DNA from: Mycobacterium noviomagense
GTDB lineage: Bacteria > Actinomycetota > Actinomycetes > Mycobacteriales > Mycobacteriaceae
Direction of reading: 5' to 3'
Length of the DNA: 64,000 bases
NCBI RefSeq assembly: GCF_010731635.1
Contig: NZ_AP022583.1
Span: 806,001-870,000, forward strand
Of this stretch, positions 2,157 to 41,283 are shown piece by piece (the first letter of the stretch is position 1; each line of letters starts with the position of its first letter). The notes under the pieces were generated by a model that saw only the letters and a list, made by a program, of their open reading frames with translations, was not told the DNA's origin and searched no databases. A program made the translations under genes and the position numbers.

Positions 2157-2181
2157 GGGCCAAAGCCTACGATCGTGGTTG

Positions 2182-3741: not shown

Positions 3742-3757
3742 CTGTTGGCTTGCCGTC

Positions 3758-3852: not shown

Positions 3853-3887
3853 AACGCGCGGCTGAACATCCCAGTCAGTATCACGGC

Positions 3888-4748
3888 ATGTCTGATGTGG
3901 TTATCGGTTCGGAGATGCTCGCCCGCGGTGCGCTCACCCGAGGGCAGCTGCGCTGGAACTACACACCGCTGTTTCCGGACGTCTATGCGCGTAAGCGAAC
4001 TGCTCCGTCGCTGTGGCGCAGTACCGTCGGCGCGTGGCTGTGGTCAGGCCGTAACGGCGTGATCGCCGGCCGCGCTGCGGCCGCGTTACACGGCGCGCTG
4101 TGGGTTGACGCGGACACGCCCATCGAAATGATCTGGCGCAGTGGCCGCCCGCCCTCAGGAATTATTGTGCGCAACGAGCGGATCGAGGCGGACGAGATCG
4201 CCGTCGTTGACGGGATGGCGCTGACAAGTCCCGCGAGGACCGCTTTGGACCTCGCCCGGCATCTGCCGCGCGATGTCGCCGTGTGTCACCTCGACGCGTT
4301 GGCCCGCGCGACCGACGTAAACGCATGTGATGCCCTTTTATTGGCCGAACGGTATCCGAGGGCGCGCGGACTGCGACGATCGGCAGCCGCGCTGACCCTG
4401 ATGGATGCAGGTGCGCAGTCACCAAAAGAGACGTGGTTGCGACTCCTGCTCATCGACGCCGGCCTAGCGGCGCCGCGAACGCAGATACGGGTAACCGACG
4501 GAATCAATGAGGCATTCATCGACATGGGTTACGACGAGCCGATGGTCGGCCTTGACTACGACGGTCAGCACCACAGCACCGACCGGGTGCGATACGTGCA
4601 CGACATCGGACGTGCCGAACTAATAGAGCGTCAGGGCTGGATCGACATTCGGGTGGTGGCCGAACACAGCCGTCGATTCATCCTTCATCGGGTGTCGGAG
4701 GCATTCGGCCGCCGCGGCTGGCCCGTGAAATTGCGCACAGGGTCGTGA
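3888..4748 (+). CDS. DUF559 / AbiEi-like protein with predicted nuclease-fold C-terminus
   Basis: The 286-residue protein has an N-terminal winged-helix-like part (SEMLARGALTRGQLRWNY, RAAAALHG) as in AbiEi-type antitoxins and solitary mycobacterial DUF559 proteins. Its C-terminus has GLDYDGQHH, HDIGRAELIERQGW and IDIRVV, the layout of a PD-(D/E)XK or Vsr-like fold. Function is unknown: it could be a DNA-binding regulator or a nuclease. No partner toxin gene is adjacent. In M. tuberculosis pmt and arcA are neighbours, so this gene is an insertion here, and short repeats flank it. Confidence 0.7.
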   Translation: MSDVVIGSEMLARGALTRGQLRWNYTPLFPDVYARKRTAPSLWRSTVGAWLWSGRNGVIAGRAAAALHGALWVDADTPIEMIWRSGRPPSGIIVRNERIEADEIAVVDGMALTSPARTALDLARHLPRDVAVCHLDALARATDVNACDALLLAERYPRARGLRRSAAALTLMDAGAQSPKETWLRLLLIDAGLAAPRTQIRVTDGINEAFIDMGYDEPMVGLDYDGQHHSTDRVRYVHDIGRAELIERQGWIDIRVVAEHSRRFILHRVSEAFGRRGWPVKLRTGS

Positions 4749-10039: not shown

Positions 10040-10787
10040 GGGCCCCTAACGCGCGGCGCGATGTCACCCTGCGCGGTCGTCTGGGTGGCGGCGCACTGGG
10101 TTACGCGGCGAACGGGAAGCTGATCGAGGTGTACGACCCAACAATCGTGTTGCGCTTGGTACTCGGGAGGTAGCGATCGAACCGATAGGGGTGGTTACCT
10201 CCTTCAAAACCCTACTCAGGGCATCGACGGTGAGAGCCTAGTACCCCGTGTCGACCGTATGCACGGACGCGTGCTCAGCTCACACACCTCGTCGCGCCCG
10301 CGGAAGGCTTGGCTGGCGTCGTCGGTGCATTGAAGCTGGCCCGAGCGTCGCAGCCGACGAACAATAGCAGCAGCTTCTCCGGTTCGCCGGTGACCGTGAC
10401 TGCGGGTCTGCGGCTGAGGATAACCAACGTCTCGCCTTCCGGTGTATGAAGCGCCAGTCGCGCCAAGACCGGCAGGGGCCGCGTCAGCACTTGCACGGTA
10501 TCGGCACCGACCTTGCGCCGTTGCGCCACACCACCTTGCCCCAGAACCTGTCGACCAGGTCGTGCCCGCGCCCGAAGAAAATTTTGTGTTCACTCGTTGC
10601 ATGCCACCGAGACTCAAACCGATTCTCGGCTTAAACTTACTCAATGTTGTCGGAAACGGTTACGCTCGTCACTTTCGAGTCGGTTGAGGTGAACTCGTCG
10701 GAGAAACAATCCCCGCCGTGTTCGACGGCTATGAGTAACTCCGGACCTAAAAGCGAAATTACAAGCTTTTGAGGGGCTAGGAAATTG
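10040..10787. other. Degraded intergenic zone
   Basis: No intact gene is visible in these 748 bp. On the plus strand about 10050-10173 reads as a plausible gene tail (DVTLRGRLGGGALGYAANG then VYDPTIVL, stop), but it lacks a start and is unrecognised. The minus strand carries a broken gene, listed separately. Base composition drops towards AT-rich from about 10640. Confidence 0.5.
10275..10529 (-). pseudogene. Remnant of a TIGR03085-type (mycothiol maleylpyruvate isomerase superfamily) protein
   Basis: The frame reads ARLALHTPEGETLVILS and PAVTVTGEPEKLLLLFVG, which matches the C-terminal part of TIGR03085-family proteins (pattern RTPEGxTL, PAVTVTGEPGELLLFxFGR). The N-terminal metal-binding helical bundle is not found upstream in any single frame, and the conserved FGR became VGC. 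It is probably a decayed gene with frameshifts between 10530 and 10640. Confidence 0.45.
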
Positions 10788-11588
10788 ATGCACAAGCGGT
10801 ACCTGAGAATTAATGTTAACTTTTCCTGGCACTTGGTCTGGATTTTTGCTTTATTAGAAGGAGTTACGGTTCCTTTGGTGCCGTTATGTTTCGAAAGCGG
10901 GCGAAGCGTCGACTCAAGTGCTTTATCTGAGGCCGTCGGCGCGAACTTCGTAACATTTGCCGAGAATATGGCGTTTACCGGTGCGTACGGAATGTCGATC
11001 GGGTTTATCGGGACATTGACCGTTTGTCTATTGTTGAACTATATTGCGTTTCGGAGAATACATGCGCATCTTGATAGCGCAGTAATTACGCGGGTGGCTC
11101 CTCCTCTAATTATCGCGCTATGGGGAGGTTTATTGTTAGCGGTCATCTTTTGGATACAGCAGTGCATTAGTGGGGCATTGGCGCTCTCCCTGGTGCCGAA
11201 TCTAATGGCCTTCGGATTTGTCTCTGCCGCGGGTAGTATCATCGTCACTGGCTTCATTTACATGCTAGCCATAAAGGGCATGCCGGCATGCGGGATCCAA
11301 TTAATTACTACAGAGCGACGACGACTATTGTTAGCCAAGGTTCCAATTGTCTCTTTTGCTACTTTAATTGGACTCTATGAAGCGTTGGCGGCGCCAATTC
11401 TGCATATATGGGAATTAGTGCCCCAACATAAATTATTAATTGCGCTGCTTATGGGTTTACTAGGCGGTGCACTTAGTAGCTTCATAACAGTGACGATAGC
11501 TCACATACCTGCGATTAAGCAGCATCTATGGGTACAGTTCTCCGAAGTGCCCGCTAATATAGAGCGACACGTATTCCATGCGCATTGA
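10788..11588 (+). CDS. AT-rich integral membrane protein of unknown function
   Basis: A 266-residue protein with about six predicted membrane segments, such as IGFIGTLTVCLLLNYIAF and LLIALLMGLLGGALSSF. It matches no family I recognise. Its codon use stands apart from all neighbours: many TTA, ATA, AAT and AAA codons and a GC content near 47 percent by eye, against about 65 percent around it. That points to recent acquisition from a low-GC source. GAGGGG lies about 10 bp before the ATG at 10788; a TTG one codon earlier is an alternative start. Confidence 0.7.
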   Translation: MHKRYLRINVNFSWHLVWIFALLEGVTVPLVPLCFESGRSVDSSALSEAVGANFVTFAENMAFTGAYGMSIGFIGTLTVCLLLNYIAFRRIHAHLDSAVITRVAPPLIIALWGGLLLAVIFWIQQCISGALALSLVPNLMAFGFVSAAGSIIVTGFIYMLAIKGMPACGIQLITTERRRLLLAKVPIVSFATLIGLYEALAAPILHIWELVPQHKLLIALLMGLLGGALSSFITVTIAHIPAIKQHLWVQFSEVPANIERHVFHAH

Positions 11589-11927
11589 TTGTCCGCTCCG
11601 TAAACGGCCTCAAATCCTCGGCGTGACCGCGCTCGCACCAGGTTAGGACCCTTTCAGGGCGCAAGTTGCTGAGTTACCGTGCCATCGCGCGGTTGCTCGC
11701 CGCGCCGGTGTACCCACACCCCGGCCCTCGCCTTTGAACACCCGGTGGGGCCATTAATGCCGCTATGGCGGCGGATTGCCTCGCGGGAGTAGGCCCGGGT
11801 AGTGGAAAGACCACCGGATCCTTGTCTGCGAATCGAGCGCACCGCGCGGTGGCCGCGGTTTAGAAGATGGTGTGCAGCGGCGCCGCGACGCCTTACGAGC
11901 CGATTCCGAAGCTCACGGCTCCCACTA
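11589..11927. other. Intergenic, nothing recognised
   Basis: About 340 bp return to high GC. Short frames exist on both strands, but none shows a ribosome-binding site, a family motif or sensible codon bias. Confidence 0.5.
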
Positions 11928-12083
11928 CTAGTGGTGCGAGCCGATGCTGAAGCCGACCCCTCCCATTGCTGCGACTGGGCCGCCGGGGGTTGGCATCGTA
12001 CATCCCGATGTTAGCAATCCAGCGGTCAGCACCGCGGCCACTACGGCAGCCCTGAGCGTCCTCTTGCGGGTCTGTGCTTTCAT
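11928..12083 (-). CDS. Mini-lipoprotein
   Basis: A 51-residue product: MKAQTRKRTLRAAVVAAV, a hydrophobic stretch, the lipobox LTSGC, then a Gly/Pro/Met-rich tail ending FSIGSHH. The ATG at 12083 has GGAGAGAAAGG about 8 bp upstream. A longer frame starts at 12161 but would bury the signal sequence. Function unknown; small lipoproteins of this kind occur widely in mycobacteria. Confidence 0.5.
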   Translation of the reverse strand: MKAQTRKRTLRAAVVAAVLTAGLLTSGCTMPTPGGPVAAMGGVGFSIGSHH

Positions 12084-12379
12084 CACTCGTGCCTTTCTCT
12101 CCGGGGTGAATTGCCACGGGTCTTTAGCTAATACACCCATCGAAATGTTATCGCCGTTCATGCCCAGACGGACGGTTTTCTGTTAATTGCGTTCAGCAGG
12201 GGTGGGCCGGCTCGCGCGGTTCATTCATCTTCGTCAGCACCGGTCAGCTGGTTGGAATTGCTCCGGGTGGACGCGATGCCGGCGCTCGCCGCGGCTCCAG
12301 CCGTGACGGCTGCGTTCGTGGGCGTGACTTGACGACTTGAGAATCGGCGAGCAGGACACCGACCCTACGTTGCCAGGGC
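12084..12379. other. Intergenic, possible gene tail
   Basis: The minus strand at about 12220-12325 has a gene-like tail (AAVTAGAAASAGIAS, stop after GADEDE) without a recognisable beginning. Nothing else can be supported here. Confidence 0.35.
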
Positions 12380-12625
12380 CTTACATGCTCCGCCGCCGGG
12401 GAAAGCTGTCGCGTTCAGTCACTCAGTTCCCGCGGCCTCGTGCAGCAGGGCCAAAAGCGTTGATCACACCGCACGATCTTCGGCACACGGTTGCCAGTTT
12501 GGCGTTGAGCGCGGGTCCAACGTAGTTGCGGTGCAACCGGATACTCGGCCATGCGAAAGCATCCATCACGCTCGACCATGTACGCCGACTTGTTCACCGA
12601 CGACTTGGCATGGTCGCGGACCGCC
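12380..12625 (+). pseudogene. Broken tyrosine integrase, C-terminal remnant
   Basis: ITPHDLRHTVASLALSAG is integrase box II. Past a stop the DNA still encodes, across at least two frameshifts, the equivalents of NVVAVQRMLGHAKASITLD and YADLFTDDL, which contain the box III His and the Tyr nucleophile. It sits about 80 bp before a tRNA-Ala 3' fragment, the same layout as the intact integrase beside the real tRNA at 41211. It is therefore probably the leftover integrase of an older element that used the same site. Confidence 0.75.
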
Positions 12626-12703
12626 TTAATTGACGCGATCCGATGTCCTACGGGCGAGCCATAGCGTGTGTTTTACCGCCAATGCCCCCACATGCTCAAA
12701 CCC

Positions 12704-12731
12704 TGTGGAGCTAAGGGGATTCGAACCCCTG
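12704..12731. repeat. attL: copy of the tRNA-Ala 3' end
   Basis: TGTGGAGCTAAGGGGATTCG and the eight bases after it are identical to 41209-41236. This is only the T-arm and acceptor 3' half of a tRNA, so it is an attachment-site copy rather than a second tRNA gene. Confidence 0.85.
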
Positions 12732-17989: not shown

Positions 17990-18982
17990 GCCAAACAGCC
18001 TAGGCAGACGGGGCGACACTTGGTGTGTAAGAGCTCAACGACGGAAATCGCAGCCTGGCTTCGGGACACTTCCGGTGTCATCACCCTGTGGGAGCATCGC
18101 CTTATGTCGATCGCAATCCCCAGCGGCCAGCCGAACTATAGATTCATGCGCTACGTTCGACCGCCGGTGGACGAGACAGAGAAACATCCGCCGCTGTTTC
18201 CGCTCCGCCCCGAGACCAGGACGCTACGGCTGGGGATCGACACCACTACGGTGCCGAGCCCACCCGAGGGACACCTGGCCAGGTTCTTCGGACGTGAAGA
18301 GATAGACGTTCAGCTCATGGTTCCGGTCGGTGAGGAGGTCCCCACCGCCTGGACAGACGTGCTGCGCGAGCCGTTGGTACGCCAGATCGGCTTCACCACG
18401 CTCGAGGACGCGGCTAAGGAACTGGACACCCGGTACTTCTGGATCAGGACAGAGACTGAGCGCGAGACGTCAAACACCCGAGCGCACTTCTTCGACGTCT
18501 ACCAGCAGCTCGATGCGCAAACCGCACCCGCTGCTAGAGATCCGATCAGAATGGAACAGCGGCACCACGCCGCCGCTTACGCGGCCGCTGCCGCTGCGCT
18601 CGGCATCGATGCGATCGTGACCAACGCGCCGACCGTTGGGAGGTCCGACGTCGCCGACAATGATGTGGTCGCCAGCGTCACTCCTGACGACGCGGTGGCG
18701 CTCATCGGTCACTAACTCCGGGTGACATCCAACCCGATCGTCGGCATTGAGGTAAGCCAAATGGTCGGCGGCGGGATTCTGACGACGACAGAGTCGACCA
18801 AAACCATCGTGAATTCCTACCTCTGGGGTGTCGCGAGCGCGATGCCCTACTTTGATGTCTCGGTGCAACACATTGGCGCTGCAGAGGGCGGTCCCAAGGT
18901 TGTGGCCTGACCCCGGTTGGTTGGTCCACGGTGTGTGAGAGTCTGGCAGCCCAGGTTTTGGGCAGGAAGGCTCGACAAGATC

Positions 18983-19264
18983 ATGGCGACAAGAAAGCGG
19001 CACACTCCCGAGCAGATTGTGCGCAAGCTGATGACGGCCGATCGGCTGTTGGCCGAGGGCAAGGACACCGCGGCGGTGTGCCGCGACCTGGGTGTCTCCG
19101 AGGCCACGTATCACCGCTGGCGCAATCAATTCGGCGGGCTCAAGGCTGAGGACGCCAAGCGGCTCAAGGACCTCGAACGCGAGAACACCACCCTCAAACG
19201 GCTGCTGGCCGACGCCGAATTGGAGAAGGCCGCACTCAAGGAGATCGCCAAGGGAAACTTCTAG
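18983..19264 (+). CDS. IS3-family transposase OrfA
   Basis: A 93-residue helix-turn-helix protein (HTPEQIVRKLMTADRLL, CRDLGVSEATYHRWRNQFGG) followed by a leucine-zipper-like segment (LKDLERENTTLKRLLADAEL), the standard OrfA layout. It binds the terminal repeats and competes with the OrfAB fusion. It ends in TAG at 19262 just after a slippery heptamer. Confidence 0.9.
   Translation: MATRKRHTPEQIVRKLMTADRLLAEGKDTAAVCRDLGVSEATYHRWRNQFGGLKAEDAKRLKDLERENTTLKRLLADAELEKAALKEIAKGNF
19252..19258 (+). promoter_or_regulatory. Programmed -1 frameshift heptamer GGGAAAC
   Basis: The orfA frame reads AAG GGA AAC TTC TAG, so G GGA AAC has the X XXY YYZ form. Slipping back one base enters the orfB frame (AAA CTT CTA GGC CCG GAA CGC), which is open into the catalytic domain. 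This is the standard IS3 strategy for making OrfAB transposase. Confidence 0.75.
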
Positions 19265-19305
19265 GCCCGGAACGCCGGCGGGCGGCCGTTGACCATCTCC
19301 AGCAC

Positions 19306-20097
19306 GTGCTGGGAGTCAGTGAGCGCTTCGCCTGCCGCGTGGCCGGGCAACACCGCTCCACCCAACGACACGAACCAGCGTCGACCACGCCGGCTGATCC
19401 GGATGCCGCGTTGCGGGCCTGGGTGCGCGCTTGGGCCAAGGAGCATCCGCGCCGGGGCTTTCGGCCCGCCTACCACGATGCGCGCGACGAAGGCTGGCCG
19501 GTCAATCACAAGAAATTCCAACGCCTGTGGCGCGAGGAGGGGCTGCGGGTGCCGCAGCGGCGACGCCGCAAACGCCACGGCACCTCAACGGCCCCGCAAG
19601 TCAGCGCAGATGCGCCCGATCAGGTGTGGGCCGCCGATTTCCAGTTCGACGTCACCACCGACGGGCGCCCAATCAAGACCGTGTCGATCATCGACGAACA
19701 CACCCGCGAATGCCTCGGCGACATGGTCGAACGCAACATCACCGGCGAAGACCTGATCTGCGAGCTCGAACGGATCGCCGCCCACCGAGGCACCTATCCG
19801 GCAGTCCTGCGCTGCGACAACGGACCCGAATTCGCCTGCGCGGCAATGGCTAACTGGGCCGCAAACCACATCGGCCTGTACTTCATCCCACCCGGCGAAC
19901 CATGGCGCAACGGCTACGTCGAATCCTTCCACTCCCGGATCCGCAACGAATGCCTCAACATCAACAGCTTCTGGTCACTGGCGCATGCCCGCGTGGTCAT
20001 CAGCGACTGGAAACACGAATACAACCACCACCGGCGCCACTCCGCCCTCGGCTACCAACCCCCGGCTCGCTACGCTGCCAGCTGTACCCACCGATGA
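19306..20097 (+). CDS. IS3-family transposase OrfB (DDE catalytic domain)
   Basis: Integrase core with the three acidic residues in place: WAADFQFD, LRCDNGPEFAC and YVESFHSRIRNECL. The N-terminal part has RRGFRPAYHDARDEGWPVNH, the HTH_21 segment. The coordinates start at the first plausible GTG/ATG-type codon, but the natural product is probably the OrfAB fusion made by frameshifting at 19252-19258; the frame is open back to that site. C-terminus YNHHRRHSALGYQPPARYA is typical. Confidence 0.92.
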   Translation: MLGVSERFACRVAGQHRSTQRHEPASTTPADPDAALRAWVRAWAKEHPRRGFRPAYHDARDEGWPVNHKKFQRLWREEGLRVPQRRRRKRHGTSTAPQVSADAPDQVWAADFQFDVTTDGRPIKTVSIIDEHTRECLGDMVERNITGEDLICELERIAAHRGTYPAVLRCDNGPEFACAAMANWAANHIGLYFIPPGEPWRNGYVESFHSRIRNECLNINSFWSLAHARVVISDWKHEYNHHRRHSALGYQPPARYAASCTHR

Positions 20098-21558: not shown

Positions 21559-22155
21559 TCAGGCCGCATCGTCTCCAGCGAGGTACCGGTAAAGCGTGGC
21601 GCGGCTGACACCGAGATACTTGGCTATGTCCCTGGTGGTATGTCCATCGGCCCTCATCCGCCTGGCTGTAGCGATGTGGTCTCTGTCCTTTACCTTCTTG
21701 GGTCTGCCGAACCGGGTGCCTTTGGCCCGGGACGCCTCCCGCTTCAGGGTCGTACGCTCTTTGGTCAGCTCCCGCTCATACTCGGCGAGCGAGCCCAGCA
21801 CGCCGATCATCATCCGACCCGCTGCCGTGCTGGAGTCGATGCCATCCGACACCGACACCAGGGTGACACCCCGGTCGGTGAGAGCCTTGACCGTCGCCAA
21901 GATGTGGAGCATGTTGCGGCCCAAGCGATCCAACTTCCACACCACCACGGTGTCGCCTTCGCGAAGGTAGACCATCAACTCGGCCAGACCCGGGCGATCA
22001 TCACGAGCGCCGGACATCACGTCCGAAAACACCTTGGTGACACCGGCGGCGGCGAGGGCTTCGTTCTGTTGGTCGAGAGTCTGGGCGACGGTGCTTACCC
22101 GGACGTACCCAATCCGCTGACCCACCGTCGGCGCCCCGGCAGCTGAGTGCGTCAT
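21559..22155 (-). CDS. Serine recombinase (resolvase/invertase family)
   Basis: A 198-residue small serine recombinase. RIGYVRVSTVAQTLDQQ holds the nucleophilic Ser; VFSDVMSGARDDRPGL and VWKLDRLGRNMLHI carry the active-site arginines. EYERELTKERT lies in the long dimer helix, and a C-terminal helix-turn-helix follows (HTTRDIAKYLGVSRATLYRYL). It resembles Tn3-type resolvases and Pin-like invertases. No transposase of a Tn3 element is nearby. A palindrome 98 bp upstream is a candidate site of action. Confidence 0.88.
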   Translation of the reverse strand: MTHSAAGAPTVGQRIGYVRVSTVAQTLDQQNEALAAAGVTKVFSDVMSGARDDRPGLAELMVYLREGDTVVVWKLDRLGRNMLHILATVKALTDRGVTLVSVSDGIDSSTAAGRMMIGVLGSLAEYERELTKERTTLKREASRAKGTRFGRPKKVKDRDHIATARRMRADGHTTRDIAKYLGVSRATLYRYLAGDDAA

Positions 22156-22252
22156 AAATGGGCTCAACGCGATATTCGAGAAAGGTATTTCTGAGACCAA
22201 CTTTCAAGACACCGCCACCTGGGCGTCAGCGTTGTAGTGACGACCCATGCCG

Positions 22253-22393: not shown

Positions 22394-24142
22394 TCAGGCC
22401 GGTTTCGTCAGGTTTTCTTTGCCTGACCGGTAGTCGTATCGAACTACATCGGATACCACAACTGTGACGTTGTCGGTTCCACCGCCACGTAATGCCAGCT
22501 CAATTAGACGGTCGGCGCTTTCGGAAACGTCAGAAATCTGCAGCACCTCGCGGATAGTGCCCTGGTTGACCGAATCAGTCAGGCCGGGCGTGCACAGGAG
22601 GTAGCGGTCACCGGGGCGGACTTCCAGCTGCTGCAGCGTTATCGGCACCTCATCTCCAGTTAGCCGCCGCATCATCCGCTTGCGCTCCGCGGCGGTAAGT
22701 CGGCTCGTATAAACTCCCGGTCCCATCACGAACTCGTCCTGAGTCAGTCGAGTAAGGACACCGTCACGGAGCAGATAGGCGCGGGACCCGCCGATGTGCG
22801 CCAACCCAACTCTATTGCCCACGAAGAACAGTGCAGTCAGCGTGGTGCCCATTCCCTTGAGCGTGGGCTCCACATCAACTTGCGCGGCGATGGCCGAGTT
22901 GCTCCTCCGGACCGCGGCTTCGAGCTGGGCAAGCATATCGTCGCCCGGTGGTTCATCGTCCAGTGGAGCCAGGGCCGCAATCACTAGTTGCGACGCGATG
23001 CTGCCGCCGATGGACGTAGCCATCCCGTCCGCAACGGCGAGGAGCCGCGCGCCGGCATAGACAGAATCTTCGTTTTGGGCATATGCCAGACCGCGGTCGC
23101 TGCGAACGGCATATCGAAGCACAAGCATCACCGAAGGCGACAACGCCGACGACGTAACCGAACCTGCACGCCCGACCGGGTCAGTGTCCTGCGGTCGGCC
23201 GGCAAGCCGGGCCCACCGGGGTGATGGTGTAGAAACCACCGGGCGGATGTCGGCCGGCAGTAAGCGCTCTTGCAGCTCCTCTATGGCAAGGCCACGCTGG
23301 ACGCCTGCCGACTGTGTGCTCAACGCTGCGCGTGCCGCCTTCGCCAGCGCTTTCGTGGTGCCGTAGCGGCGGTTTGGATCTTTTGCCATCCCTTTTGCGA
23401 TGACTTCGTCCATCCGCTTGGAAATGGCGCGGGTTAACTCCGATGGCTTCGGCGGTGGCAAGAACAGATGTGCCGCCGCGATCTGATCAAGGCTCTCACC
23501 AGGAAAAGGCAGTTGACGGGTAAGCGACTGGTACAGCACACACGCGAGCGCATAAACATCCGCGCGGGCATCGGCTGTACCGTCCTTGAAACGCTCCGGG
23601 GCCATGTAGTCCCAAGTGCCGATCGGTACTCCAGTGCCCGTCAGGGCACTGTCTTCCGGAGCTCGTGCTATCCCGAAGTCGATGAGGTAGGCAAACACGT
23701 CGTCGTCCTCGGTAACCAAGATGTTGGACGGTTTCACATCGCGGTGGACCAATCCTTTCTGGTGGGCAGCGTGCAACGCCGAAGCGATCTGCTCAACGAT
23801 TTTGACTGCGCGCGTTGGCGGCAGCGGGCCGTCGTTGAGAAGCTCTTGCAGGTCGCGGCCGTTGATCAGGCGCATGGTCACAAACAGTCGTCCTTCGATC
23901 TCGCCGAAATCATGGATCGGGACCACATGAGGTGCGTCAAGTCCAGCTGCTGCCCTGGCCTCCCGCCGGAACCGCTCCCGGAACACCTTGTCGTCCGCGA
24001 AACTCACTGGCAGCTTCTTCAATGCCACCACCCTGTCAATCGCGGTGTCGTAGGCGCGCCAGACTTCCCCCATGCCGCCCCGGCCGAGCAACTCCACCAG
24101 CCGATAACGACCGAACGGCGTCCCGTCCACTTCGACCTCCAC
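22394..24142 (-). CDS. Ser/Thr protein kinase fused to a degenerate PP2C phosphatase domain
   Basis: A 582-residue soluble protein. The kinase (about 12-275) is complete: GRGGMGEVW loop, VALKK lysine, HRDVKPSN, DFGIA and YMAPE. After a linker, residues of about 343-571 closely resemble the mycobacterial phosphatase PstP (RSDRGLAYAQNEDSVYAGAR, SQLVIAALAPLDDE, RLIELALRGGGTDNVTVVV). Two metal-ligand aspartates of PstP are replaced: HIGDSR reads HIGGSR and LCSDGL reads LCTPGL; DGMGGH is altered to DGMATS. The phosphatase half is therefore probably inactive or a sensor. No membrane segment follows. It is divergent from an EmbR-like FHA regulator, the usual type of kinase target. Confidence 0.9.
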   Translation of the reverse strand: MEVEVDGTPFGRYRLVELLGRGGMGEVWRAYDTAIDRVVALKKLPVSFADDKVFRERFRREARAAAGLDAPHVVPIHDFGEIEGRLFVTMRLINGRDLQELLNDGPLPPTRAVKIVEQIASALHAAHQKGLVHRDVKPSNILVTEDDDVFAYLIDFGIARAPEDSALTGTGVPIGTWDYMAPERFKDGTADARADVYALACVLYQSLTRQLPFPGESLDQIAAAHLFLPPPKPSELTRAISKRMDEVIAKGMAKDPNRRYGTTKALAKAARAALSTQSAGVQRGLAIEELQERLLPADIRPVVSTPSPRWARLAGRPQDTDPVGRAGSVTSSALSPSVMLVLRYAVRSDRGLAYAQNEDSVYAGARLLAVADGMATSIGGSIASQLVIAALAPLDDEPPGDDMLAQLEAAVRRSNSAIAAQVDVEPTLKGMGTTLTALFFVGNRVGLAHIGGSRAYLLRDGVLTRLTQDEFVMGPGVYTSRLTAAERKRMMRRLTGDEVPITLQQLEVRPGDRYLLCTPGLTDSVNQGTIREVLQISDVSESADRLIELALRGGGTDNVTVVVSDVVRYDYRSGKENLTKPA

Positions 24143-24379
24143 GGCAAGTGCGGTTCAGCGACACAATAAGCCGTGTGACAGCGCCAAGTGCGACAAACCG
24201 AAACCATTGGTTGAGTTGCCAAAACTGGGCTGGCGATCGACAACGCTCATCTGTACTCGGTTGCCGCAACTAAAGACCGCGGCCCGGATCCGATCCGGCG
24301 ATCCCGTCCGAAGCGTGGCCGGTGGCGGCCATAATGGGGACCTGACGCCCCCGGATTAGCTGGAAGGCTGGTAGCGACG

Positions 24380-25513
24380 ATGGGGGGAACGCGTCTCAAG
24401 TTCGGCGTGCTGGGACCGTTGCTGATGAGAGTGGACGGCACGCCTGTGGACCTGGGCGCCCGGAAACAGCGGGCGGTGCTCGCCATGTTCGTCCTGAACC
24501 GCAACCGCCCGGTTGCAATCGAGTCATTGATTGACGCCGTGTGGGATCAACGACCAGTGCCGGCAGCGCGAGTAACCGTCCAATCCTACGTCTCGAACTT
24601 GCGCCGACTCCTCAGCAACGCTGGGTTCGACGCGCGCGAGGTGCTAGCTAAAGCACCGCCAGGGTATCGACTCAATGTCGCTGAGGCCGCCTGTGATCTT
24701 GATCGTTTCAACACCGAACAGTCCGCCGGAGTGCACGCCGCCGCTGCGGGACGATTCGAACAAGCCAGCAGCCACTTGTCGGCGGCGCTGGCCGAATGGC
24801 GCGGGCCAGTCCTCGAGGACTTGCGCGACTTTGCCTTCGTCGAACCGTGGGCCACCGCCCTGACAGGAGACAAACTGCGGGCCCATACCGCCCTCGCGGA
24901 AGCCGAAATCGCGTGTGGACGCGCCTACACCATTGTCGGCGAGCTCGAGAAGCTCGCCGCCGAAAACCCTCACGATGAACCGCTATGGGCGCAACTGATC
25001 ACGGCGTACTACGTCACTAAACGCCAATCGGATGCTCTGCGCACCTATCAGCGACTGCAAACGACCCTGGCCGAGGAACTAGGCATCGACCCCGATCCCA
25101 CCGTCAGTGCCCTATATGAAAAGATCCTGCGCCAGGTGCCCCTGGACACCAAACGAGCGGCCCAAGCCACTGCAGCGGAAACCTTAATCCACTCCAAACG
25201 TCGCATGGCGGCTCCCACCCAGTTCGTAATCGCTCGGCTGCGCGATACCGCCGGGCGCCACTATCCGCTGGAAGCCGCAGACATCCGGATCGGGCGCCTT
25301 CGTGACAACGACATCGTTTTGAGTGATGCCGACGTCAGCCGCCACCACGCCGCCATCATCGACACCGGAACCAGTTTCATGATTAGGGATCTGCGGTCGG
25401 CCAACGGTGTCGAAGTGCAGGGCCAGCGAATCGACATAAGCGCGGACCTTGTCGATGGTGACCATATTCGCATCGGCAGTCACGAGTTCATATTCGAAAT
25501 TCACTCGCGCTAA
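24380..25513 (+). CDS. EmbR-like transcriptional regulator (winged helix, BTAD, FHA)
   Basis: A 377-residue SARP-type regulator. It has an OmpR-like DNA-binding domain (about 5-100; LGARKQRAVLAMFVLNRNRP, VQSYVSNLRRLL), a bacterial transcriptional activation domain (about 100-255; AYYVTKRQSDALRTYQRL, LGIDPDPTVSALYEKIL) and a C-terminal FHA domain (about 290-375; IRIGRLRDNDIVLSDADVS, RHHAAI, RDLRSANGVEVQG). The FHA Arg, Ser and Asn residues for phosphothreonine binding are kept. This is the EmbR architecture; EmbR is phosphorylated by PknH and controls arabinosyltransferase genes. Its target genes here are unknown. Confidence 0.9.
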   Translation: MGGTRLKFGVLGPLLMRVDGTPVDLGARKQRAVLAMFVLNRNRPVAIESLIDAVWDQRPVPAARVTVQSYVSNLRRLLSNAGFDAREVLAKAPPGYRLNVAEAACDLDRFNTEQSAGVHAAAAGRFEQASSHLSAALAEWRGPVLEDLRDFAFVEPWATALTGDKLRAHTALAEAEIACGRAYTIVGELEKLAAENPHDEPLWAQLITAYYVTKRQSDALRTYQRLQTTLAEELGIDPDPTVSALYEKILRQVPLDTKRAAQATAAETLIHSKRRMAAPTQFVIARLRDTAGRHYPLEAADIRIGRLRDNDIVLSDADVSRHHAAIIDTGTSFMIRDLRSANGVEVQGQRIDISADLVDGDHIRIGSHEFIFEIHSR

Positions 25514-27325: not shown

Positions 27326-28825
27326 TCAGCCCGCTGCGTACGCGAGCATTGGCTCGGAAGACGCTTGTCCAGTTGCTGGCGCGATAGTCAGACCTGTCGG
27401 ACGAATCTGGTAGCGGGTTCCGTCCGTCGGGTTCGTCACGTCGAAGCCTTGTGACGACCGCACTGCATTTGCCAGCTCGATGCTGGCGCTGTCACTTAGA
27501 CGAACCCCGCGATAGTAGAAGTTTCCGGGCTGGATCTCGCATACCACTAACACGGACTGAGTGGTGCGAGCCATGACTGCCGGCTCAGTTCCCGGATCGC
27601 AACGCGCACCAGGGTAACTGGTCCAGCCAAGGTTGTCGGTTCCCGGCAGGCTACTGGGGCGCAAATGCGCAGTTGTTGTTGCTGATTCGGTCGTCGCTGG
27701 CGCGATAGGTGCCATCGGGCTTTGCGGCCCCCTGCCATTTCGTTCGCCGTTGCGGTCGCGGACAATTACCGAAAAAACGACGACCAGCGCCGCAAGCAGC
27801 ATGATGCCGGATGCAACAGCTAGGATCAGTGGGCCGCGTCCAAACCTATTCCTTGCCGGTGGTGCTTCGGCTTGCTGAATGTGATCCCTGTACGGAATGT
27901 AATCGGATCCCTCGGGGTTCGGCCACCGTTGAGAAAATCTGCGAGTGTCCCTTGGCTGATCGGGGTGAGTAGCTTCAGCCGGCCTCTGGCGTGAAGCTGC
28001 AGCATTAGCTGCGCGCGCAAGCTCACCCGCTGACGCAAACCGCGACTCCGGCCGCTTTTCCATGCCGCGGGCAATGACGTCATCGAAATCGCGCGCCAGC
28101 TCTGGACGCGTGACGCTCGGTGGAGCGGGGCGTCTCATAGTATGCGCAGCCATCATTTGCAATACGTCCCCTGGCGGAAAAGGGGTATGGCCGGTCAGGC
28201 ATTCGTATAGCACGCATGCCAGCGAGTAGACGTCGGCCGGCGGGCCCACATGCTCGCCGGTGAACCGTTCCGGCGCCATGTACGCGCACGACCCAATCGC
28301 GGCCCCGGCGCTGGTAAGGCCTGTCTCCCCGCCCAGGTGCGCGATGCCGAAATCGACCAGGTAGGCGAAGTCGTTCCGGTTGAGAAGGACGTTTTCCGGC
28401 TTGACGTCGCGATGGACGAGTCCGCAGGCATGTGCAGCGTCCAGGGCCGCGGCCACTTGCGCGACGATTGAGGTCGCGCGGGCCGGATCCAGCGGGCCGT
28501 TCTCCGCTAGTACGGTCTTAAGGTCGTGGCCCTCCACCAAGCGCATGTCGATGTAAAGCACCCCGTTGATCTCCCCAAAGTCATGCACGGGGATGACGTG
28601 CGGCTCCTGTAATCGCGCCGCTACCCGCGATTCGCGACGGAACCTCTCCTGGTACGACGGATCGGCCGCGAACTCGCGGCGCAGCAATTTCACGGCGACC
28701 ACGCGATCCTTGACGGTGTCATAGGCCTGATACACCTCGCCCATACCGCCCGCCCCAATCAGCGAACGGAGCTCGTAGGGTCCGAACATCTCGCCGACGC
28801 GTGAGCCACCGCGGGAGCCGGTCAT
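27326..28825 (-). CDS. Membrane-anchored Ser/Thr protein kinase (PknF/PknH-like)
   Basis: A 499-residue receptor kinase. The kinase domain at about 14-275 has GAGGMGEVY, VAVKLL, HRDVKPEN, DFGIA and YMAPE. The juxtamembrane linker is charged. One membrane helix (LILAVASGIMLLAALVVVF, about 333-357) leads to an extracytoplasmic domain of about 140 residues. That domain has a cysteine pair and the motif VVCEIQPGNFYYRGVRLSD, found in other mycobacterial exported proteins. It differs from the first kinase in carrying its own sensor. About 3.2 kb separates it from the first kinase, with the EmbR-like gene between them. Confidence 0.92.
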   Translation of the reverse strand: MTGSRGGSRVGEMFGPYELRSLIGAGGMGEVYQAYDTVKDRVVAVKLLRREFAADPSYQERFRRESRVAARLQEPHVIPVHDFGEINGVLYIDMRLVEGHDLKTVLAENGPLDPARATSIVAQVAAALDAAHACGLVHRDVKPENVLLNRNDFAYLVDFGIAHLGGETGLTSAGAAIGSCAYMAPERFTGEHVGPPADVYSLACVLYECLTGHTPFPPGDVLQMMAAHTMRRPAPPSVTRPELARDFDDVIARGMEKRPESRFASAGELARAANAAASRQRPAEATHPDQPRDTRRFSQRWPNPEGSDYIPYRDHIQQAEAPPARNRFGRGPLILAVASGIMLLAALVVVFSVIVRDRNGERNGRGPQSPMAPIAPATTESATTTAHLRPSSLPGTDNLGWTSYPGARCDPGTEPAVMARTTQSVLVVCEIQPGNFYYRGVRLSDSASIELANAVRSSQGFDVTNPTDGTRYQIRPTGLTIAPATGQASSEPMLAYAAG

Positions 28826-29767: not shown

Positions 29768-32023
29768 CTGCTTGATCTCAAGACGCCTGCGATCGATCCG
29801 GACATCCTGGACAACAAGATCAAGGCTCACCGCCGATTGTTCATGACGGCTACCCCGCGCATCTACTCGGCTCATGTCCTGAAGACAGCGAAGGAGGCAG
29901 GTTATGAGTTCGCCTCGATGGACGACGAGGAGAAATTCGGAAAAGTATTCCACCGTCTCACCTTTCACCAGGCGATAGAGCTGAAGCTACTGACCGACTA
30001 CCAGGTCGCCATCATCGGTGTCGATAACGCCACCTACCGAGACTGGGCCGAAAAGGGTTGGTTCATTACCGTTGACGGTAAGGAAGTGAAGGACGCTCGC
30101 TCCGTGGCTGGACAGATCGGGCTAGCCAAAGCGATGCGCGAGTACGAACTGCACCGGGTCATCACTTTCCACCGGCTCGTCAAGGGGGCCAAAGAGTTTA
30201 AGGCGTCGTTTCCTGGCGTCATCGATTGGATGCCCGCACGGCAGCGACCCAAGGGCAAGCTGTGGACGGATCATGTTGACGGCACGATGTCTGCCTGGGA
30301 ACGCCAGCGTCGGCTGCAACGTCTTGGCGATGTAGGTAATGGCGAGCACGGGGTTATCTCTAATGCACGTTGCCTCACCGAAGGAATCGACGTTCCCACC
30401 CTTGACGGAGTGGCCTTCATCGACCCAAAACGATCAGACATCGACATCGCCCAGGCTGTCGGTCGTGCCATCCGGCTTGCTGACGACAAGACAATCGGCA
30501 CCATCGTCATCCCCGTTTTCATCGACACTGACGAACCGAATCCTGATGTCGTCCTTAAAGACTCAGCATTCAAGGCGGTTTGGGACGTTTTGCTGGCACT
30601 ACGATCCCACGACGAAGACTTGGCCCAACAGTTAGATGACCTGCGCCGGATGCTCGGACGGCTACCTAGTGGCAGCCGTGGTTCATTACGACTGCCGCCC
30701 AAGATTGTCGAGATTCCAGATGTCTGCGGTGCCGACTTCGCCCGCGCTTTCGAGGTGCGCCTTATTGAGCAGACCACCGCGTCGTGGGAGTTCTGGTTCG
30801 GGCTGCTGGAACGGTTCCTCGATGACAACGGTCACGCCCGCGTCCCGCAGTCCTACTCCCTGGATGGCTACTCGCTCGGCTCGTGGGTTAGCACGCAGCG
30901 CAGTCGCCACCGCAAGGCTACCCTCGCCGCGGATTTGCAACATCGGCTTGAAGACCTGCCCGGCTGGACATGGGACATTCTGGCCGACCAATGGGAGGCG
31001 GGGTTCAGCCGACTCCTGGACTACGTTGAACGCCACGGTTATGCCCGCGTCCCAGTGTCCTACATGGTCGATGGCTACAAGCTAGGCGCGTGGGTAAACG
31101 AACAATGCACTAGACATGCCAAAGGCATCCTGGAGGCCGACCGCGAACGCCGACTCCTCGAACTGGCCGGTTGGACATGGGACCGGCACGACGACACATG
31201 GGAGAAGGGTTACCGCAGACTCCTGGACTACGTCGAACGCCACGGTGATGCCCGCGTCCCGCAGTTATACACCGTCGATGGTTACCAGCTCGGTGCATGG
31301 GCCACGACGCAACGCGTCAATCGCACTAAAGGCACCCTTGACGCAGATCGCGAACGGCGACTGCAAGACCTGCCGGGGTGGACATGGGACGCTGTCACCG
31401 ACAAATGGGAGGACGGTTACCACCGGCTCATGCAATACGTTGAATCTAACGGTGATTCCCGTGTCCCATACTCCTACACCGTCGATGGCTACCAGCTCGG
31501 TGCATGGGTCAAGATCCAGCGGGGTTCCTTCGCCGACGGTCTGCTTGATGGCGACCGCCAACGCCGACTGCAGGAACTGCCTGGGTGGACATGGGACCCT
31601 CGCGCCGATATGTGGGAGGAGGGTTTCCGCCGACTCGTGGGTTATGTCGAACGCCATGGTGATGCCCGCGTCCCGAAGCCATACATTGTCGATGGCTACA
31701 AACTCGGCGACTGGGTGCACAACCAACGCAGCTTCCGCGCCAGAGGCGCACTTGACGCAGACCGCGAACGCCGACTTCAGGAACTGGCCGGATGGACATG
31801 GGACCCTCGCGCCGACAAGTGGGAGGAGGGTTATCGCCGACTCGTGGATTATGTCGAACGCCATGGTGATGCCCGTGTCCCGCAGTCTCACACCGTCGAT
31901 GGCTACCAACTCGGTGCATGGGTCACAACGCAACGCCAAAGGCAGAAGAAAGCATTACTTGATGCCGATCGCCAACGCCGACTCGAAGGGCTGCCCGGCT
32001 GGACTTGGAATGCACGCCCGTAG
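29768..32023 (+). pseudogene. 5'-truncated superfamily 2 helicase with six helicase-associated (HA) repeats
   Basis: The frame opens after a TAG at 29765 and already reads DPDILDNKIKAHRRLFMTATPRIYS, the end of a DEAD-type domain (motif III MTATPR). Walker A and the DExH box are absent upstream. The second RecA domain is present (GVISNARCLTEGIDVPTLDG, IDIAQAVGRAIR), followed by six 69-residue HA repeats. ATP hydrolysis is not expected. A shortened product could start at 29837 or 29843. Full-length relatives lie in phage-defence and restriction contexts. Confidence 0.75.
30779..32020 (+). repeat. Six tandem 207-bp repeats encoding HA domains
   Basis: The Trp-Glu anchor codons recur at 30785, 30992, 31199, 31406, 31613 and 31820, always 207 bp apart. 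Each unit encodes WExGYRRLLDYVERHGxARV, a YxVDGYxLGAWV core and ADRxRRLxELPGWTWD. Units 5 and 6 are the most alike, which suggests recent unequal crossing-over. Confidence 0.9.
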
Positions 32024-32309: not shown

Positions 32310-33185
32310 CTAGTGCCGCAAGAACGCGGCGCGTTGGTAATCGTCAAGAACGCTGCGGGTTTCCGGCGCGAAGCGCCTGGCGCGATTACGGTTTCGACGC
32401 CGGTAGAGATCCAGCAACGCCTGGGCCGGATCGGTCATGTCAAGCCCGCCGTATCGCTTGCCGCGTTCCTCATTTAGCCTGCGCCTCAGGGTAAGTTCAC
32501 GCTGCGCCGCGTCATTGCTGCGGTGTTCGACACCCGGCAACACGGTCGGCGGCGCGGATACCGCTAGGTCAGTGCGCGTGAACAACGAACGTAGCTCACC
32601 CTGCGCGGCCAGGGCGATCACGTCTTCTTCGTCCACATCAGCGAACAGTGAAAGCGACCGGTACAAGGTCTTCACGGTGGCGTCGGGATATGCCGGAATC
32701 GCCGTTGGCGCGACGTCAATCAGCCGACCACTCACCAGGTGACGTTCAGGCATCCCGCCGTCACCCAGACGCCAGTCGTCATCGTACGCCTGGAAACTGA
32801 ACGACGATCCAGGCAGGTCGCCGCGCTCGGCCAATTCCCAGACATCGCTGCGGGTTTCGGGGACCCGGACTGAGTAGTCCAGCCCGGTGTTGTCCAGCTT
32901 CAATTCCAGCGTCCGAGATGCGGTGCTACCCAGTAGCATTCGCGGGTCGTGCTCGAAACGTGCGACAACCATGGGCCAGCCGTCGCTCTTTGACTTGTTG
33001 AAGAACGACGGTTCTACAACCTCTCGGATGCCGCCCATTGGGTGTGAACGCTTCCCGAACACGGCTGCGTAGCCGCCGATTACGCGGGCTTGGCCGCCGT
33101 TGAGACTGCGCGTCTCAACTCGCAGACCATTGGAGAACACACCTGTATGTAGCCGCTCCATCGATGGATCACTGCTCATTGACAT
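32310..33185 (-). CDS. HK97-type prohead protease with C-terminal extension
   Basis: A phage capsid-maturation serine protease of 291 residues. The protease domain is about 1-175: GGYAAVFGKRSHPMGGIREV, VVARFEHDPRMLLGSTAS with the catalytic His, and GDLPGSSFSFQAYDDDW with the catalytic Ser. The phiRv1 and phiRv2 relatives are about 170-177 residues; here about 115 extra residues follow, including RRRLNEERGKRYGG. The major capsid gene expected next is absent. Confidence 0.82.
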   Translation of the reverse strand: MSMSSDPSMERLHTGVFSNGLRVETRSLNGGQARVIGGYAAVFGKRSHPMGGIREVVEPSFFNKSKSDGWPMVVARFEHDPRMLLGSTASRTLELKLDNTGLDYSVRVPETRSDVWELAERGDLPGSSFSFQAYDDDWRLGDGGMPERHLVSGRLIDVAPTAIPAYPDATVKTLYRSLSLFADVDEEDVIALAAQGELRSLFTRTDLAVSAPPTVLPGVEHRSNDAAQRELTLRRRLNEERGKRYGGLDMTDPAQALLDLYRRRNRNRARRFAPETRSVLDDYQRAAFLRH

Positions 33186-39379: not shown

Positions 39380-39937
39380 ATGGCAACTCACAAACGTGAA
39401 AACGACCTGTTTTCGCAACGAGTCAAATCAGAGCGTGAGTCAAGGGGTTGGACCCAGCGACAATTCGCGGAGATGCTCGGCTGGCACTGGACGACCGCCG
39501 CCAAGGTTGAGAACGGCCAGCGCAGTGTCAGGGTCGATGAGGCAGCGATGATAGCGGACCTCTTCGGGGTGTCCCTCGATGTGCTGCTCGGGCGGAAGGC
39601 GAATCTCCGCACCGACGTGGCGTACATCCTTCGCAGTATGCAACAGGATGCAAGCAAGGCGGCACACGAGATTGGTGGCCTGCTGGACGATATCCAGGAC
39701 TGGTTCATGGAACTAGAGGCCGCCCGTGGCGTCCAGGTGGTTCCGCGGAGTGACGTCACACCCGAGATGACGCGTGAACACACTATGTGGCAGCCCCTCG
39801 GCAGCGCGGTCGGAACGGTGCTGCGCGATCTTCACAGCGCACGAGACGCCCTACACGAGATCGCACGGTTCGAACCGCGGCATGACACAGGGAGACGCAG
39901 GTCCGAAAAGAGGAATCGATCGAATGACAAGTCGTAA
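39380..39937 (+). CDS. Xre-family repressor
   Basis: A 185-residue protein. The N-terminal Cro/CI-type helix-turn-helix is at about 11-68 (RESRGWTQRQFAEMLGWHWT, KVENGQRSVRVDEAAMIADL). The C-terminal half is helical, probably for dimerisation, and ends in a basic tail. It is probably the immunity repressor that keeps the element silent. It overlaps the integrase start by 14 bp, so repressor and integrase are expressed together. Confidence 0.8.
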   Translation: MATHKRENDLFSQRVKSERESRGWTQRQFAEMLGWHWTTAAKVENGQRSVRVDEAAMIADLFGVSLDVLLGRKANLRTDVAYILRSMQQDASKAAHEIGGLLDDIQDWFMELEAARGVQVVPRSDVTPEMTREHTMWQPLGSAVGTVLRDLHSARDALHEIARFEPRHDTGRRRSEKRNRSNDKS

Positions 39938-41156
39938 CCGCCGTGCCGGTGTAGAGGATCGCTGGCACAAGACAATCCGTGACGAACACGGCAACGAGAA
40001 GCGCGAGCCTAGCGCGAAGTACGGGCGGGGCCTGCGCTGGCAGGCCCGCTGGGTCGATGACGACGGCTGTGAGCAATCCAAGTCGTTCGACACCAAAGGC
40101 GCAGCCAAGCAATGGCTCGATTCCGAGATAACCGCCAAGGTCGCCACCGGCACGTATGTGCCGCCACGAGCCGGTGTGCTCACCGTCGCCGAGGTCTACA
40201 CGTCCTGGTCCGCCTCGCAAGGCCACATCAGCGCCAAGACAGCGGCGACGCGCAAAAGTGCTTGGGGCAGCCGCGTTGAACCGCAGTGGGGTGCCGTGGC
40301 GGTTGCCGACGTGAAGACCGCAGCGGTGCGGGCGTGGGTCGCCAAACTCAAGAGCGAAGGTGTCGGTGTGCCGGGCATTGAGAACGCATTCGGTCTGCTA
40401 CGTCAGGTGCTCGGCGCTGCGGTCGAGGAGGCCCGTATACCGCGTAATCCGTGCGACGGGGTGAAGCTGCCCAAACGCGAACACCCTGACCGTGGATACC
40501 TGACGCACGTTCAAGTGGTGGCGCTCGCGGCTACCGTCGAGCGGGACGGCACTGTGGTGCGGTTCCTGGCGTACACGGGTCTGCGGTGGGGTGAGATGGC
40601 CGCGCTTCGCGTGCGGGATTTCGACATGCTGCGTCGCCGGGTCAACGTATCGCGGTCGGTCACCGAGGCGGGGGGCCTGGTGTGGCGCACGCCGAAGACA
40701 TGGGAGCGTCGCTCGGTGCCCTTCCCAGCCGCGCTGGCCGACGAACTGTCAGCACTCATGGTGGGCAAGTCACGCGACACGCTCGTGTTCACCGACATGC
40801 GCGGGGGTGTGCTGCGTAACTCGAACTGGCGGGCGCGGGTGTTCGCGCCAGCGGTCGCCGCGTGCCAGAAGGCCGACGAGTCGTTTCCGACGATCACCCC
40901 GAACGACCTACGCCACACCGCAGCGTCTCTGGCGATCAGCGCCGGGGCCAACGTGAAGGCGGTGCAACGGATGCTCGGGCACGCCAAGGCGTCGATGACG
41001 CTGGACGTGTACGCGGACCTGTTCGACACCGATCTAGACGCCGTGGCGGTCGAGTTGGATACGGCCATCAAAGCTGCTGCCGCGCGAGCGGATCGAGACC
41101 CGAAATCAAAGGCTGCTGCGGGCCGGTTGCGGGCCGGAACACCCGAACCTGACTAG
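39924..41156 (+). CDS. int: Tyrosine integrase
   Basis: A 410-residue phage-type integrase. The SAM-like core-binding domain (TVAEVYTSWSASQGHISAKT) is followed by the catalytic domain with Arg in TGLRWGEMAAL (R221), DLRHTAAS (R330), LGHAKAS (box III His) and Tyr in LDVYADLF (Y363). The usual box II His (PHDLRH) is Asn here (PNDLRH, about 327). ATG 39924 follows AGAGGA. It ends beside the tRNA-Ala attachment site. Confidence 0.92.
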   Translation: MTSRNRRAGVEDRWHKTIRDEHGNEKREPSAKYGRGLRWQARWVDDDGCEQSKSFDTKGAAKQWLDSEITAKVATGTYVPPRAGVLTVAEVYTSWSASQGHISAKTAATRKSAWGSRVEPQWGAVAVADVKTAAVRAWVAKLKSEGVGVPGIENAFGLLRQVLGAAVEEARIPRNPCDGVKLPKREHPDRGYLTHVQVVALAATVERDGTVVRFLAYTGLRWGEMAALRVRDFDMLRRRVNVSRSVTEAGGLVWRTPKTWERRSVPFPAALADELSALMVGKSRDTLVFTDMRGGVLRNSNWRARVFAPAVAACQKADESFPTITPNDLRHTAASLAISAGANVKAVQRMLGHAKASMTLDVYADLFDTDLDAVAVELDTAIKAAAARADRDPKSKAAAGRLRAGTPEPD

Positions 41157-41208: not shown

Positions 41209-41236
41209 TGTGGAGCTAAGGGGATTCGAACCCCTG
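41209..41236. repeat. attR: attachment-site copy overlapping the tRNA-Ala 3' end
   Basis: The 28 bp are identical to 12704-12731 and cover the T-arm 3' half and acceptor 3' strand of the tRNA plus two outer bases. Confidence 0.85.
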
Positions 41237-41283
41237 ACCTACTCGATGCGAACGAGTCGCGCTACCAACTGCGCCATAGCCCC
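41211..41283 (-). tRNA. tRNA-Ala (anticodon CGC)
   Basis: A 73-nt cloverleaf on the minus strand. The acceptor stem is GGGGCTA/TAGCTCC with discriminator A. The D-arm is GCGCAGTTGGTAGCGC, the anticodon stem ACTCG/CGAGT with loop TTCGCAT (anticodon CGC), and the T-arm loop contains TTCGAAT. No encoded CCA. It is intact because the island's attachment repeat restores its 3' end. Confidence 0.95.

What the first reader, a model, noticed from the sequence alone, without database searches (positions are those of the whole stretch)
22394..24142. Ser/Thr kinase fused in one chain to a PstP-like phosphatase that has lost metal ligands
The sequence shows a complete kinase followed by a domain closely resembling mycobacterial PstP. 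PstP's metal-ligand aspartates in GDSR and SDGL are replaced (HIGGSR, LCTPGL), and DGMGGH is altered. In core mycobacteria kinases and PstP are separate proteins. A kinase carrying a captured pseudophosphatase could use it as a scaffold, a phosphothreonine sensor, or a decoy against PstP. I know of no described mycobacterial protein of this kind.
Basis: partly seen in the sequence, partly recalled or inferred. Interest (0 to 1): 0.85.

Follow-up and report, generated by a model that had tools for sequence, protein, structure and literature searches.

The report
Mobile kinase fused to dead phosphatase
A mycobacterial mobile DNA element carries one gene that joins a seemingly intact protein kinase to a broken-looking copy of the cell's main protein phosphatase, next to a gene regulator of the kind such kinases control; this suggests a new way of wiring bacterial phosphate signalling, not yet tested at the bench.

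Summary
Window 22394-24142 (minus strand) is one 582-residue frame: a Ser/Thr kinase with all motifs checked, a linker, and a PP2C domain 62-66% identical to PstP. Catalysis is very unlikely; this is inferred, not assayed. New findings: (1) the gene lies in a 28.5-kb integrated element with exact 28-bp repeats of the tRNA-Ala 3' end and an integrase; the two nearest genomes in the draw lack it at that site. (2) It is divergent from an EmbR-type regulator; 29 of 40 mycobacterial EmbR-like loci examined have a kinase nearby. (3) All 11 kinase-half relatives checked have a membrane-type segment; here the pseudophosphatase stands in its place. (4) A codon model rejects neutral drift of the PP2C half, but constraint is relaxed. 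(5) Among listed matches from 396 genus and 346 phylum genomes, no other spans both halves. Kinase-PP2C fusions are in print elsewhere, so this is a new variant. Best mechanism, inferred: a soluble kinase with a docking domain for phosphoproteins.

The parts
22394..24142 (-). fused kinase-pseudophosphatase gene, 582 aa, GTG start
23342..24106 (-). Ser/Thr kinase domain (residues 13-267); G-loop GRGGMG, VALKK lysine, HRDVKPSN, DFG, APE present
23129..23302 (-). linker (residues 281-338) without a transmembrane segment (highest 19-residue hydropathy of the whole protein 1.52)
22427..23128 (-). PstP-derived PP2C domain (residues 339-572); Y354 (R20), G452 (D118), P519 (D191) in place of the catalytic residues, D372 (D38) and D557 (D229) kept
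24143..24379 (.). divergent intergenic region between the fusion and the EmbR-like gene; no sigma-70-type site found
24380..25513 (+). EmbR-type regulator (winged helix, BTAD, FHA); 507 bits to M. tuberculosis EmbR 2fez; FHA motifs GR, SRHH, NG present
27326..28825 (-). second Ser/Thr kinase, with a transmembrane segment near residue 330
21559..22200 (-). serine recombinase (resolvase domain), 193 bases downstream of the fusion
18917..20097 (+). IS3-like element, two frames; rve domain in the second (the first was not searched)
39774..41156 (+). tyrosine integrase of the element
41210..41283 (-). tRNA-Ala(cgc), integration site
12704..12731 (+). far att repeat, exact 28-bp copy of the tRNA 3' end
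41209..41236 (+). att repeat within tRNA-Ala

Best explanation
A soluble Ser/Thr kinase whose usual membrane and sensor half has been replaced by a catalytically dead copy of the PstP core, carried on an integrated mobile element together with an EmbR-type regulator. Shown by sequence: the fusion, the loss of catalytic residues, the missing membrane segment, the element and the divergent EmbR neighbour. Inferred: the kinase is active and phosphorylates the neighbouring EmbR-like protein (and itself); the pseudophosphatase no longer removes phosphate but keeps part of PstP's ability to recognise phosphorylated kinases and substrates. It would hold the phosphoprotein near the kinase, shield it from the cell's real PstP, and so prolong the phosphorylated state. 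The element would thereby carry its own signalling branch, partly insulated from the host phosphatase.
For: One frame with both domains. Sites invariant in 30 of 30 PstP rows are lost at R20, D118, S160 and D191, and the flap is shortened. One Asp that bridges Mn1 and Mn3 in the bacterial enzymes (taken here to be D191's equivalent) is conserved even in SpoIIE (PMC3517971, passages). PPM enzymes need at least two metals (PMC12002173 section 7). Kinase motifs present. All 11 kinase-half relatives checked (10 genome loci and one plasmid) have a membrane-type segment (peak hydropathy 2.0-3.2); the fusion has none (1.52). 29 of 40 mycobacterial EmbR-like loci and 3 of 6 plasmid loci have a kinase frame within 3.5 kb; two of the three plasmid pairs are divergent as here. 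PstP is reported to dephosphorylate PknH, and a cited title names EmbR as a substrate of kinases and phosphatase (PMC6213207, passages). Codon model of the PP2C half: omega 1 gives lnL -4340.5; omega 0.24 and 0.14 at longer fixed lengths give -4323.8 and -4323.1. The fusion, EmbR-like gene and second kinase have third-position GC of 0.68-0.70 against 0.79-0.83 in pstP, galU, mprA and pepD.
Against: No binding, kinase or phosphatase data. The fusion is seen in a single genome. 59 of 184 PstP-invariant sites are changed, so substrate-binding surfaces may be lost as well. The flap, implicated in substrate handling, is cut. Constraint is relaxed about 7-11 fold against PstP (omega 0.14-0.24 against 0.021); synonymous sites are near saturation, the branch's place in the tree is poorly supported (tree), and a composition shift is ignored by the model. 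The kinase half is closer to kinases at ten loci without an EmbR-like gene in the 8.6-16 kb held (69-72%) than to those beside EmbR-like genes (53-61% in most). Orientation is divergent, whereas 27 of the 29 mycobacterial pairs are co-oriented. Two other element genes (DUF732 gene 0.80, recombinase 0.77) do not share the low third-position GC.
Confidence: 0.4

Rival explanations
1. The pseudophosphatase works in cis only: it has replaced the membrane sensor half as a dimerising or autoinhibitory module that sets kinase activity, with no hold on other phosphoproteins.
For: It stands where the related kinases checked have their membrane segment and sensor. TAB1, named as a PP2C pseudophosphatase in PMC12002173, is by its name a binding protein of the kinase TAK1.
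Against: No direct evidence; the PstP origin would then be incidental.
Confidence: 0.25
2. The PP2C half is a decaying passenger of a chance fusion; only the kinase half, or nothing, functions.
For: Found in one genome; long branch; 59 of 184 invariant sites changed; a neutral simulation to 65% identity leaves no stop in 15% of 1500 runs, so an open frame alone is weak evidence; the region holds an IS element and a recombinase.
Against: The codon model rejects omega 1 by about 17 log units; the flap deletion keeps the frame; 14 of 20 changed hydrophobic invariant sites stay hydrophobic.
Confidence: 0.25
3. The PP2C half acts as a decoy in trans: it binds the host's PstP targets or partners and lowers PstP action to the element's benefit.
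For: Mobile cargo derived from a host-type regulator; the fusion shares none of 6 changes special to this lineage's own PstP (4 in the common state, 2 in a third), which fits import from another lineage.
Against: No binding data; the linked kinase and EmbR-like gene suggest a dedicated pathway rather than general interference.
Confidence: 0.07
4. The PP2C half is an active phosphatase with unusual metal ligands, making a bifunctional kinase-phosphatase.
For: E24, D38 and D229 remain, and D195 (alignment). Chains with both activities are suggested for other bacteria (PMC12088040, passage).
Against: D191, D118, S160 and R20 are all lost, with no acidic residue in place of D118 or D191 in the alignment. 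Residues of this site are reported as needed for activity (PMC13129536, passage).
Confidence: 0.03

Closest known systems
PstP, the PP2C phosphatase of mycobacteria
   Same: PP2C half 58-68% identical to 35 PstP rows; homology begins at the PstP start and runs to the end of the catalytic core
   Different: lacks R20, D118, S160, D191 and six flap residues; lacks the rest of PstP behind the core; fused behind a kinase
PknE/PknH-type mycobacterial kinases; PknH-EmbR pair
   Same: kinase domain family (PknE 2h34, 292 bits); EmbR-type neighbour, a pairing seen at 29 of 40 EmbR-like loci examined
   Different: no membrane or sensor half; divergent orientation; pseudophosphatase instead
TAB1 and PHLPP2, eukaryotic PP2C pseudophosphatases
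   Same: PP2C domain short of catalytic metal ligands, with one metal site left (PMC12002173, section 7); that E24, D38 and D229 correspond to ligands of that site is recalled
   Different: eukaryotic; not joined to a kinase in one chain (recalled); not PstP-derived
PP2C-kinase composite proteins of Pseudomonas and Deinococcus
   Same: PP2C and Ser/Thr kinase in one chain (PMC1262709, passages)
   Different: PP2C lies N-terminal to the kinase in the Pseudomonas ones described; not reported as inactive in the passages seen
PknQ-MupFHA of plasmid pMUM001
   Same: mobile DNA with a kinase and a neighbouring FHA protein (PMC4238996, passages)
   Different: no phosphatase domain mentioned in the passages seen; the FHA partner is listed with Rv3863, not with EmbR

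Membership tests
Hanks-type Ser/Thr kinase | glycine loop, catalytic lysine, HRD..K..N, DFG, APE | tested here: met
   Pfam 156.8 bits, cut-off 31.7
Hanks-type Ser/Thr kinase | kinase activity | not testable with these tools
   needs an assay
PstP (active PP2C phosphatase) | PP2C domain by sequence | tested here: met
   PP2C_2 38.2 bits, cut-off 24; 1txo E 5.6e-84
PstP (active PP2C phosphatase) | metal ligands D38, D118, D191, D229 and phosphate Arg20 | tested here: not met
   D118, D191, R20 lost
PstP (active PP2C phosphatase) | NCBIfam Stp1_PP2C_phos equivalog cut-off | tested here: not met
   141.4 bits, cut-off 230
PP2C pseudophosphatase (TAB1/PHLPP2 kind) | PP2C domain lacking ligands needed for two metals | tested here: met
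   by sequence only
PP2C pseudophosphatase (TAB1/PHLPP2 kind) | no catalytic activity, at most one metal bound | not testable with these tools
   needs protein
PP2C-kinase composite proteins | both domains in one chain | tested here: met
PknH-EmbR pair | EmbR-type regulator beside the kinase | tested here: met
PknH-EmbR pair | membrane kinase with outer sensor | tested here: not met
   no membrane segment
tRNA-integrated mobile element | direct repeats of the tRNA 3' end, integrase at one end, empty site in relatives | tested here: met
   the stretch unmatched in relatives begins at about 10457, 2.2 kb before the far repeat

The most novel reading that the evidence does not exclude
A mobile element has domesticated the host's PstP-type phosphatase as a dead docking domain, tied to its own kinase, so that kinase and EmbR-like regulator form a branch of phosphate signalling protected from the host phosphatase: a bacterial counterpart of TAB1-TAK1 in one chain.
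Probability: 0.2. Interest if true: 0.85.

Novelty: new variant of a known kind. Interest (0 to 1): 0.57.

Why it matters
Mycobacteria run many kinases against one main phosphatase, PstP (M. tuberculosis: 11 kinases, one such phosphatase, PMC12088040, passage). A pseudophosphatase made from PstP and tied to a kinase would show how a single signalling branch can escape that shared eraser, and would be, as far as the searches named here show, the first PstP-derived pseudophosphatase described in mycobacteria. It also marks kinase-EmbR pairs as partly mobile cargo, and gives a natural tool for separating substrate recognition by PstP from catalysis.

Tried and rejected
Open frame as proof of function: a neutral simulation left no stop in 15% of 1500 runs, so it was not used as strong evidence. 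The first codon-model run ran to an unbounded branch length and had not converged; it is replaced by the profile. Viral contigs with the PP2C half: 5 stretches matched a pattern, none a relative. Plasmids and phages: no fused relative among the rows listed (10 of 885 records, 10 of 53, 12 of 189); the two-piece hits lie on separate kinase and phosphatase genes wherever features are shown. Rows whose match ran well past residue 339 (G381 to 391 and G319 to 382) and (G553, G699) were checked as possible hidden fusions: no PP2C homology in those four frames. Of the rows ending at 342-346, G276 and G124 (L101, L106) and the own-genome kinase at C1:4741278 (L111) were covered by the scans and showed none; G160 (to 344) was not fetched. 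Promoter scan: no sigma-70-type site. Placing the donor of the PP2C half within the genus failed: long branch, weak support, one usable genus-specific site; the duplicate own row L003 is the fusion itself. The species was not identified.

Limits: the genome searches score only the best few candidates per genome (3 for the full protein for the PP2C half), list about 150 matches at most, and draw from a larger group; so absence is of those drawn and listed, not of all.

Full report
What is there. The frame at 22394-24142 on the minus strand encodes 582 residues from a GTG start. Residues 13-267 are a Pkinase domain and residues 360-526 a PP2C_2 domain. The closest solved structures are PknE for the first half and PstP for the second. 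In the own genome 19 of 20 Pkinase matches are over the Pfam cut-off; apart from the fusion these are 18 genes or pieces, two of them pieces of one split gene. Two other PP2C matches are over the cut-off, one of them a normal pstP with two FHA-type and two kinase frames close by.

Is the phosphatase half dead? In an alignment with 30 mycobacterial PstP rows, the fused domain has Y at R20, G at D118, K at S160 and P at D191, ATS for GGH at 41-43, and lacks residues 153-158; E24, D25, D38, G39, D229 and N230 stay. R20, D118, S160, D191 and GGH are invariant in the 30 rows. The literature seen here says that one Asp bridging Mn1 and Mn3 is conserved even in SpoIIE (I take it to be D191's equivalent), that Asp118 and Ser160 serve Mn3 (PMC3517971, passages), and that R20, D38, D118, S160, D191 and D195 line the PstP site and that mutations there reduce or abolish function (PMC13129536, passages). 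PHLPP2 and TAB1 keep a single metal at the site called M2 there and are inactive or expected to be (PMC12002173, passages and section 7). By sequence, then, this is a pseudophosphatase; no assay exists.

Is it decaying? Compared with 15 PstP genes, pN is 0.20-0.24 and pS 0.55-0.71, whereas the 15 PstP-PstP pairs computed have pN 0.008-0.069. On a tree of 14 sequences (13 PstP and the fusion, 226 codons) a codon model with omega 1 on the fused branch reaches lnL -4340.5; with the branch length fixed at 3 or 5 it fits omega 0.24 or 0.14 with lnL -4323.8 and -4323.1, background omega about 0.02. At a fixed length of 0.5 the fit is omega 1.6 with a much worse lnL of -4346.7. Synonymous sites are near saturation, the branch's place is weakly supported, and third-position GC differs (0.67 in the PP2C half against 0.81 in pstP), which the model ignores; so the size of omega is uncertain. 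The absence of stops alone is weak evidence: 15% of neutral simulations show none. I conclude that the domain has been under constraint for at least part of its history, much weaker than PstP's.

What replaced what. The ten genome loci fetched around the best kinase-half matches are 69-72% identical to it, and an M. gordonae plasmid kinase 67%. All 11 have a strongly hydrophobic segment; the fusion has none. The PstP part begins at the PstP start and stops 11 residues after the last shared motif, YDY. So a chain without a membrane segment has been made from a kinase of a membrane-bound kind and the PstP core.

Where it lies. An exact 28-bp copy of the 3' end of tRNA-Ala (41209-41236) stands at 12704-12731; an integrase (39774-41156) lies beside the tRNA; phage-type primase and head-protease genes lie at 36066-37979 and 32310-33185. 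G185 and G319, nearest in the draw by the chromosomal stretch searched, match the window up to 9.2 kb, at 10.26-10.46 kb and again from 41.21 kb, with no blastn match between in the 19.9 kb held of each. In G185 the gap holds about 850 bases. The element is therefore most simply an insertion in this lineage; 10457-12703 is also missing from the relatives but lies outside the repeats. The PP2C search of both genomes finds their PstP only. The fusion, the EmbR-like gene, the second kinase and a 257-aa frame have third-position GC of 0.67-0.70, against 0.79-0.83 in four core genes; the DUF732 gene (0.80) and the recombinase (0.77) of the element do not. Six changes mark the PstP of this lineage (three genomes); the fusion has none of them, four common states and two others, which fits import but also a split before those changes.

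The neighbour. 24380-25513, divergent from the fusion, is an EmbR-type regulator (507 bits to 2fez) with FHA motifs present. G185 and G319 have only weak matches, all in the FHA region or near it; the own genome has a second one, 65% identical, at C1:406897. From a search of 148 genus genomes I took 40 of the first 51 non-own places listed, with flanks; 11 were passed over without a look. 29 of the 40 have a kinase frame within 3.5 kb, 27 of these co-oriented; 11 do not, one of them (L215) near a contig end. Of six plasmid loci, three (all Rhodococcus) have one, two of them divergent. EmbR-kinase pairing is thus common and partly mobile.

How unusual is it? PP2C half: 248 genus genomes, 244 with a match; in the listed rows the best non-own identity is 67%. 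Full protein: 396 genus genomes and 346 phylum genomes (343 with a match); among listed rows only the own genome matches over 1-582. Genome contigs: 41 loci, all matched in the kinase half or shortly behind it. Among 6058 frames from the 258 records held, 205 match the kinase half and 57 the PP2C half; only copies of the own locus match both. In print, PP2C-kinase chains were reported in 2005 with PP2C at the N terminus (PMC1262709, passages) and in 2025 as mainly from Pseudomonadota (PMC12088040, passages and section 3.4). Searches for a mycobacterial fusion or a PstP pseudophosphatase (listings seen) showed none; most subscription papers are not in that library.

Mechanism. Shown: architecture, loss of catalytic residues, no membrane segment, mobile cargo, EmbR neighbour. 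Inferred: an active kinase; the EmbR-like protein as substrate; phosphoprotein docking by the dead domain and protection from PstP. A cis-acting regulatory module and a passenger are the main rivals. The gene is a real and odd object whose function is open to a handful of ordinary assays.

Counts were recounted against the calls; wording on nearest genomes, kinase identities, orientation and third-position GC was mended.

Noticed in passing
L113 5741-7537 and 9045-11693 (G000:C1 about 411700-417700): A vWA-like protein (below Pfam's cut-off), a second-type PP2C and a large kinase-like protein lie close together in the own genome; the set resembles the TerY-P triad (recalled, not tested). An EmbR-like paralogue lies about 4 kb away.
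   Followed up: partly
L107 (G343:C66) 939-4570, minus: A frame with a PP2C domain and NHL repeats lies directly upstream of a kinase of the same family; PknD is a kinase with NHL repeats (recalled), so here a PP2C seems to sit on a sensor usually carried by a kinase.
   Followed up: partly
L110 7571-9606 (G000:C1 about 3187600-3189600): A kinase gene of the own genome is split over two overlapping frames (259 and 437 aa).
   Followed up: no
window 10457-12703: Stretch outside the att repeats that is also unmatched in the two nearest genomes; GC falls to 0.53 at 10.5-12 kb.
   Followed up: no
window 29837-32023: Helicase with six helicase-associated (HA) stretches inside the element.
   Followed up: no
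L087 3196-7569: M. gordonae plasmid p1 carries two adjacent Ser/Thr kinases related to the fused kinase half.
   Followed up: partly
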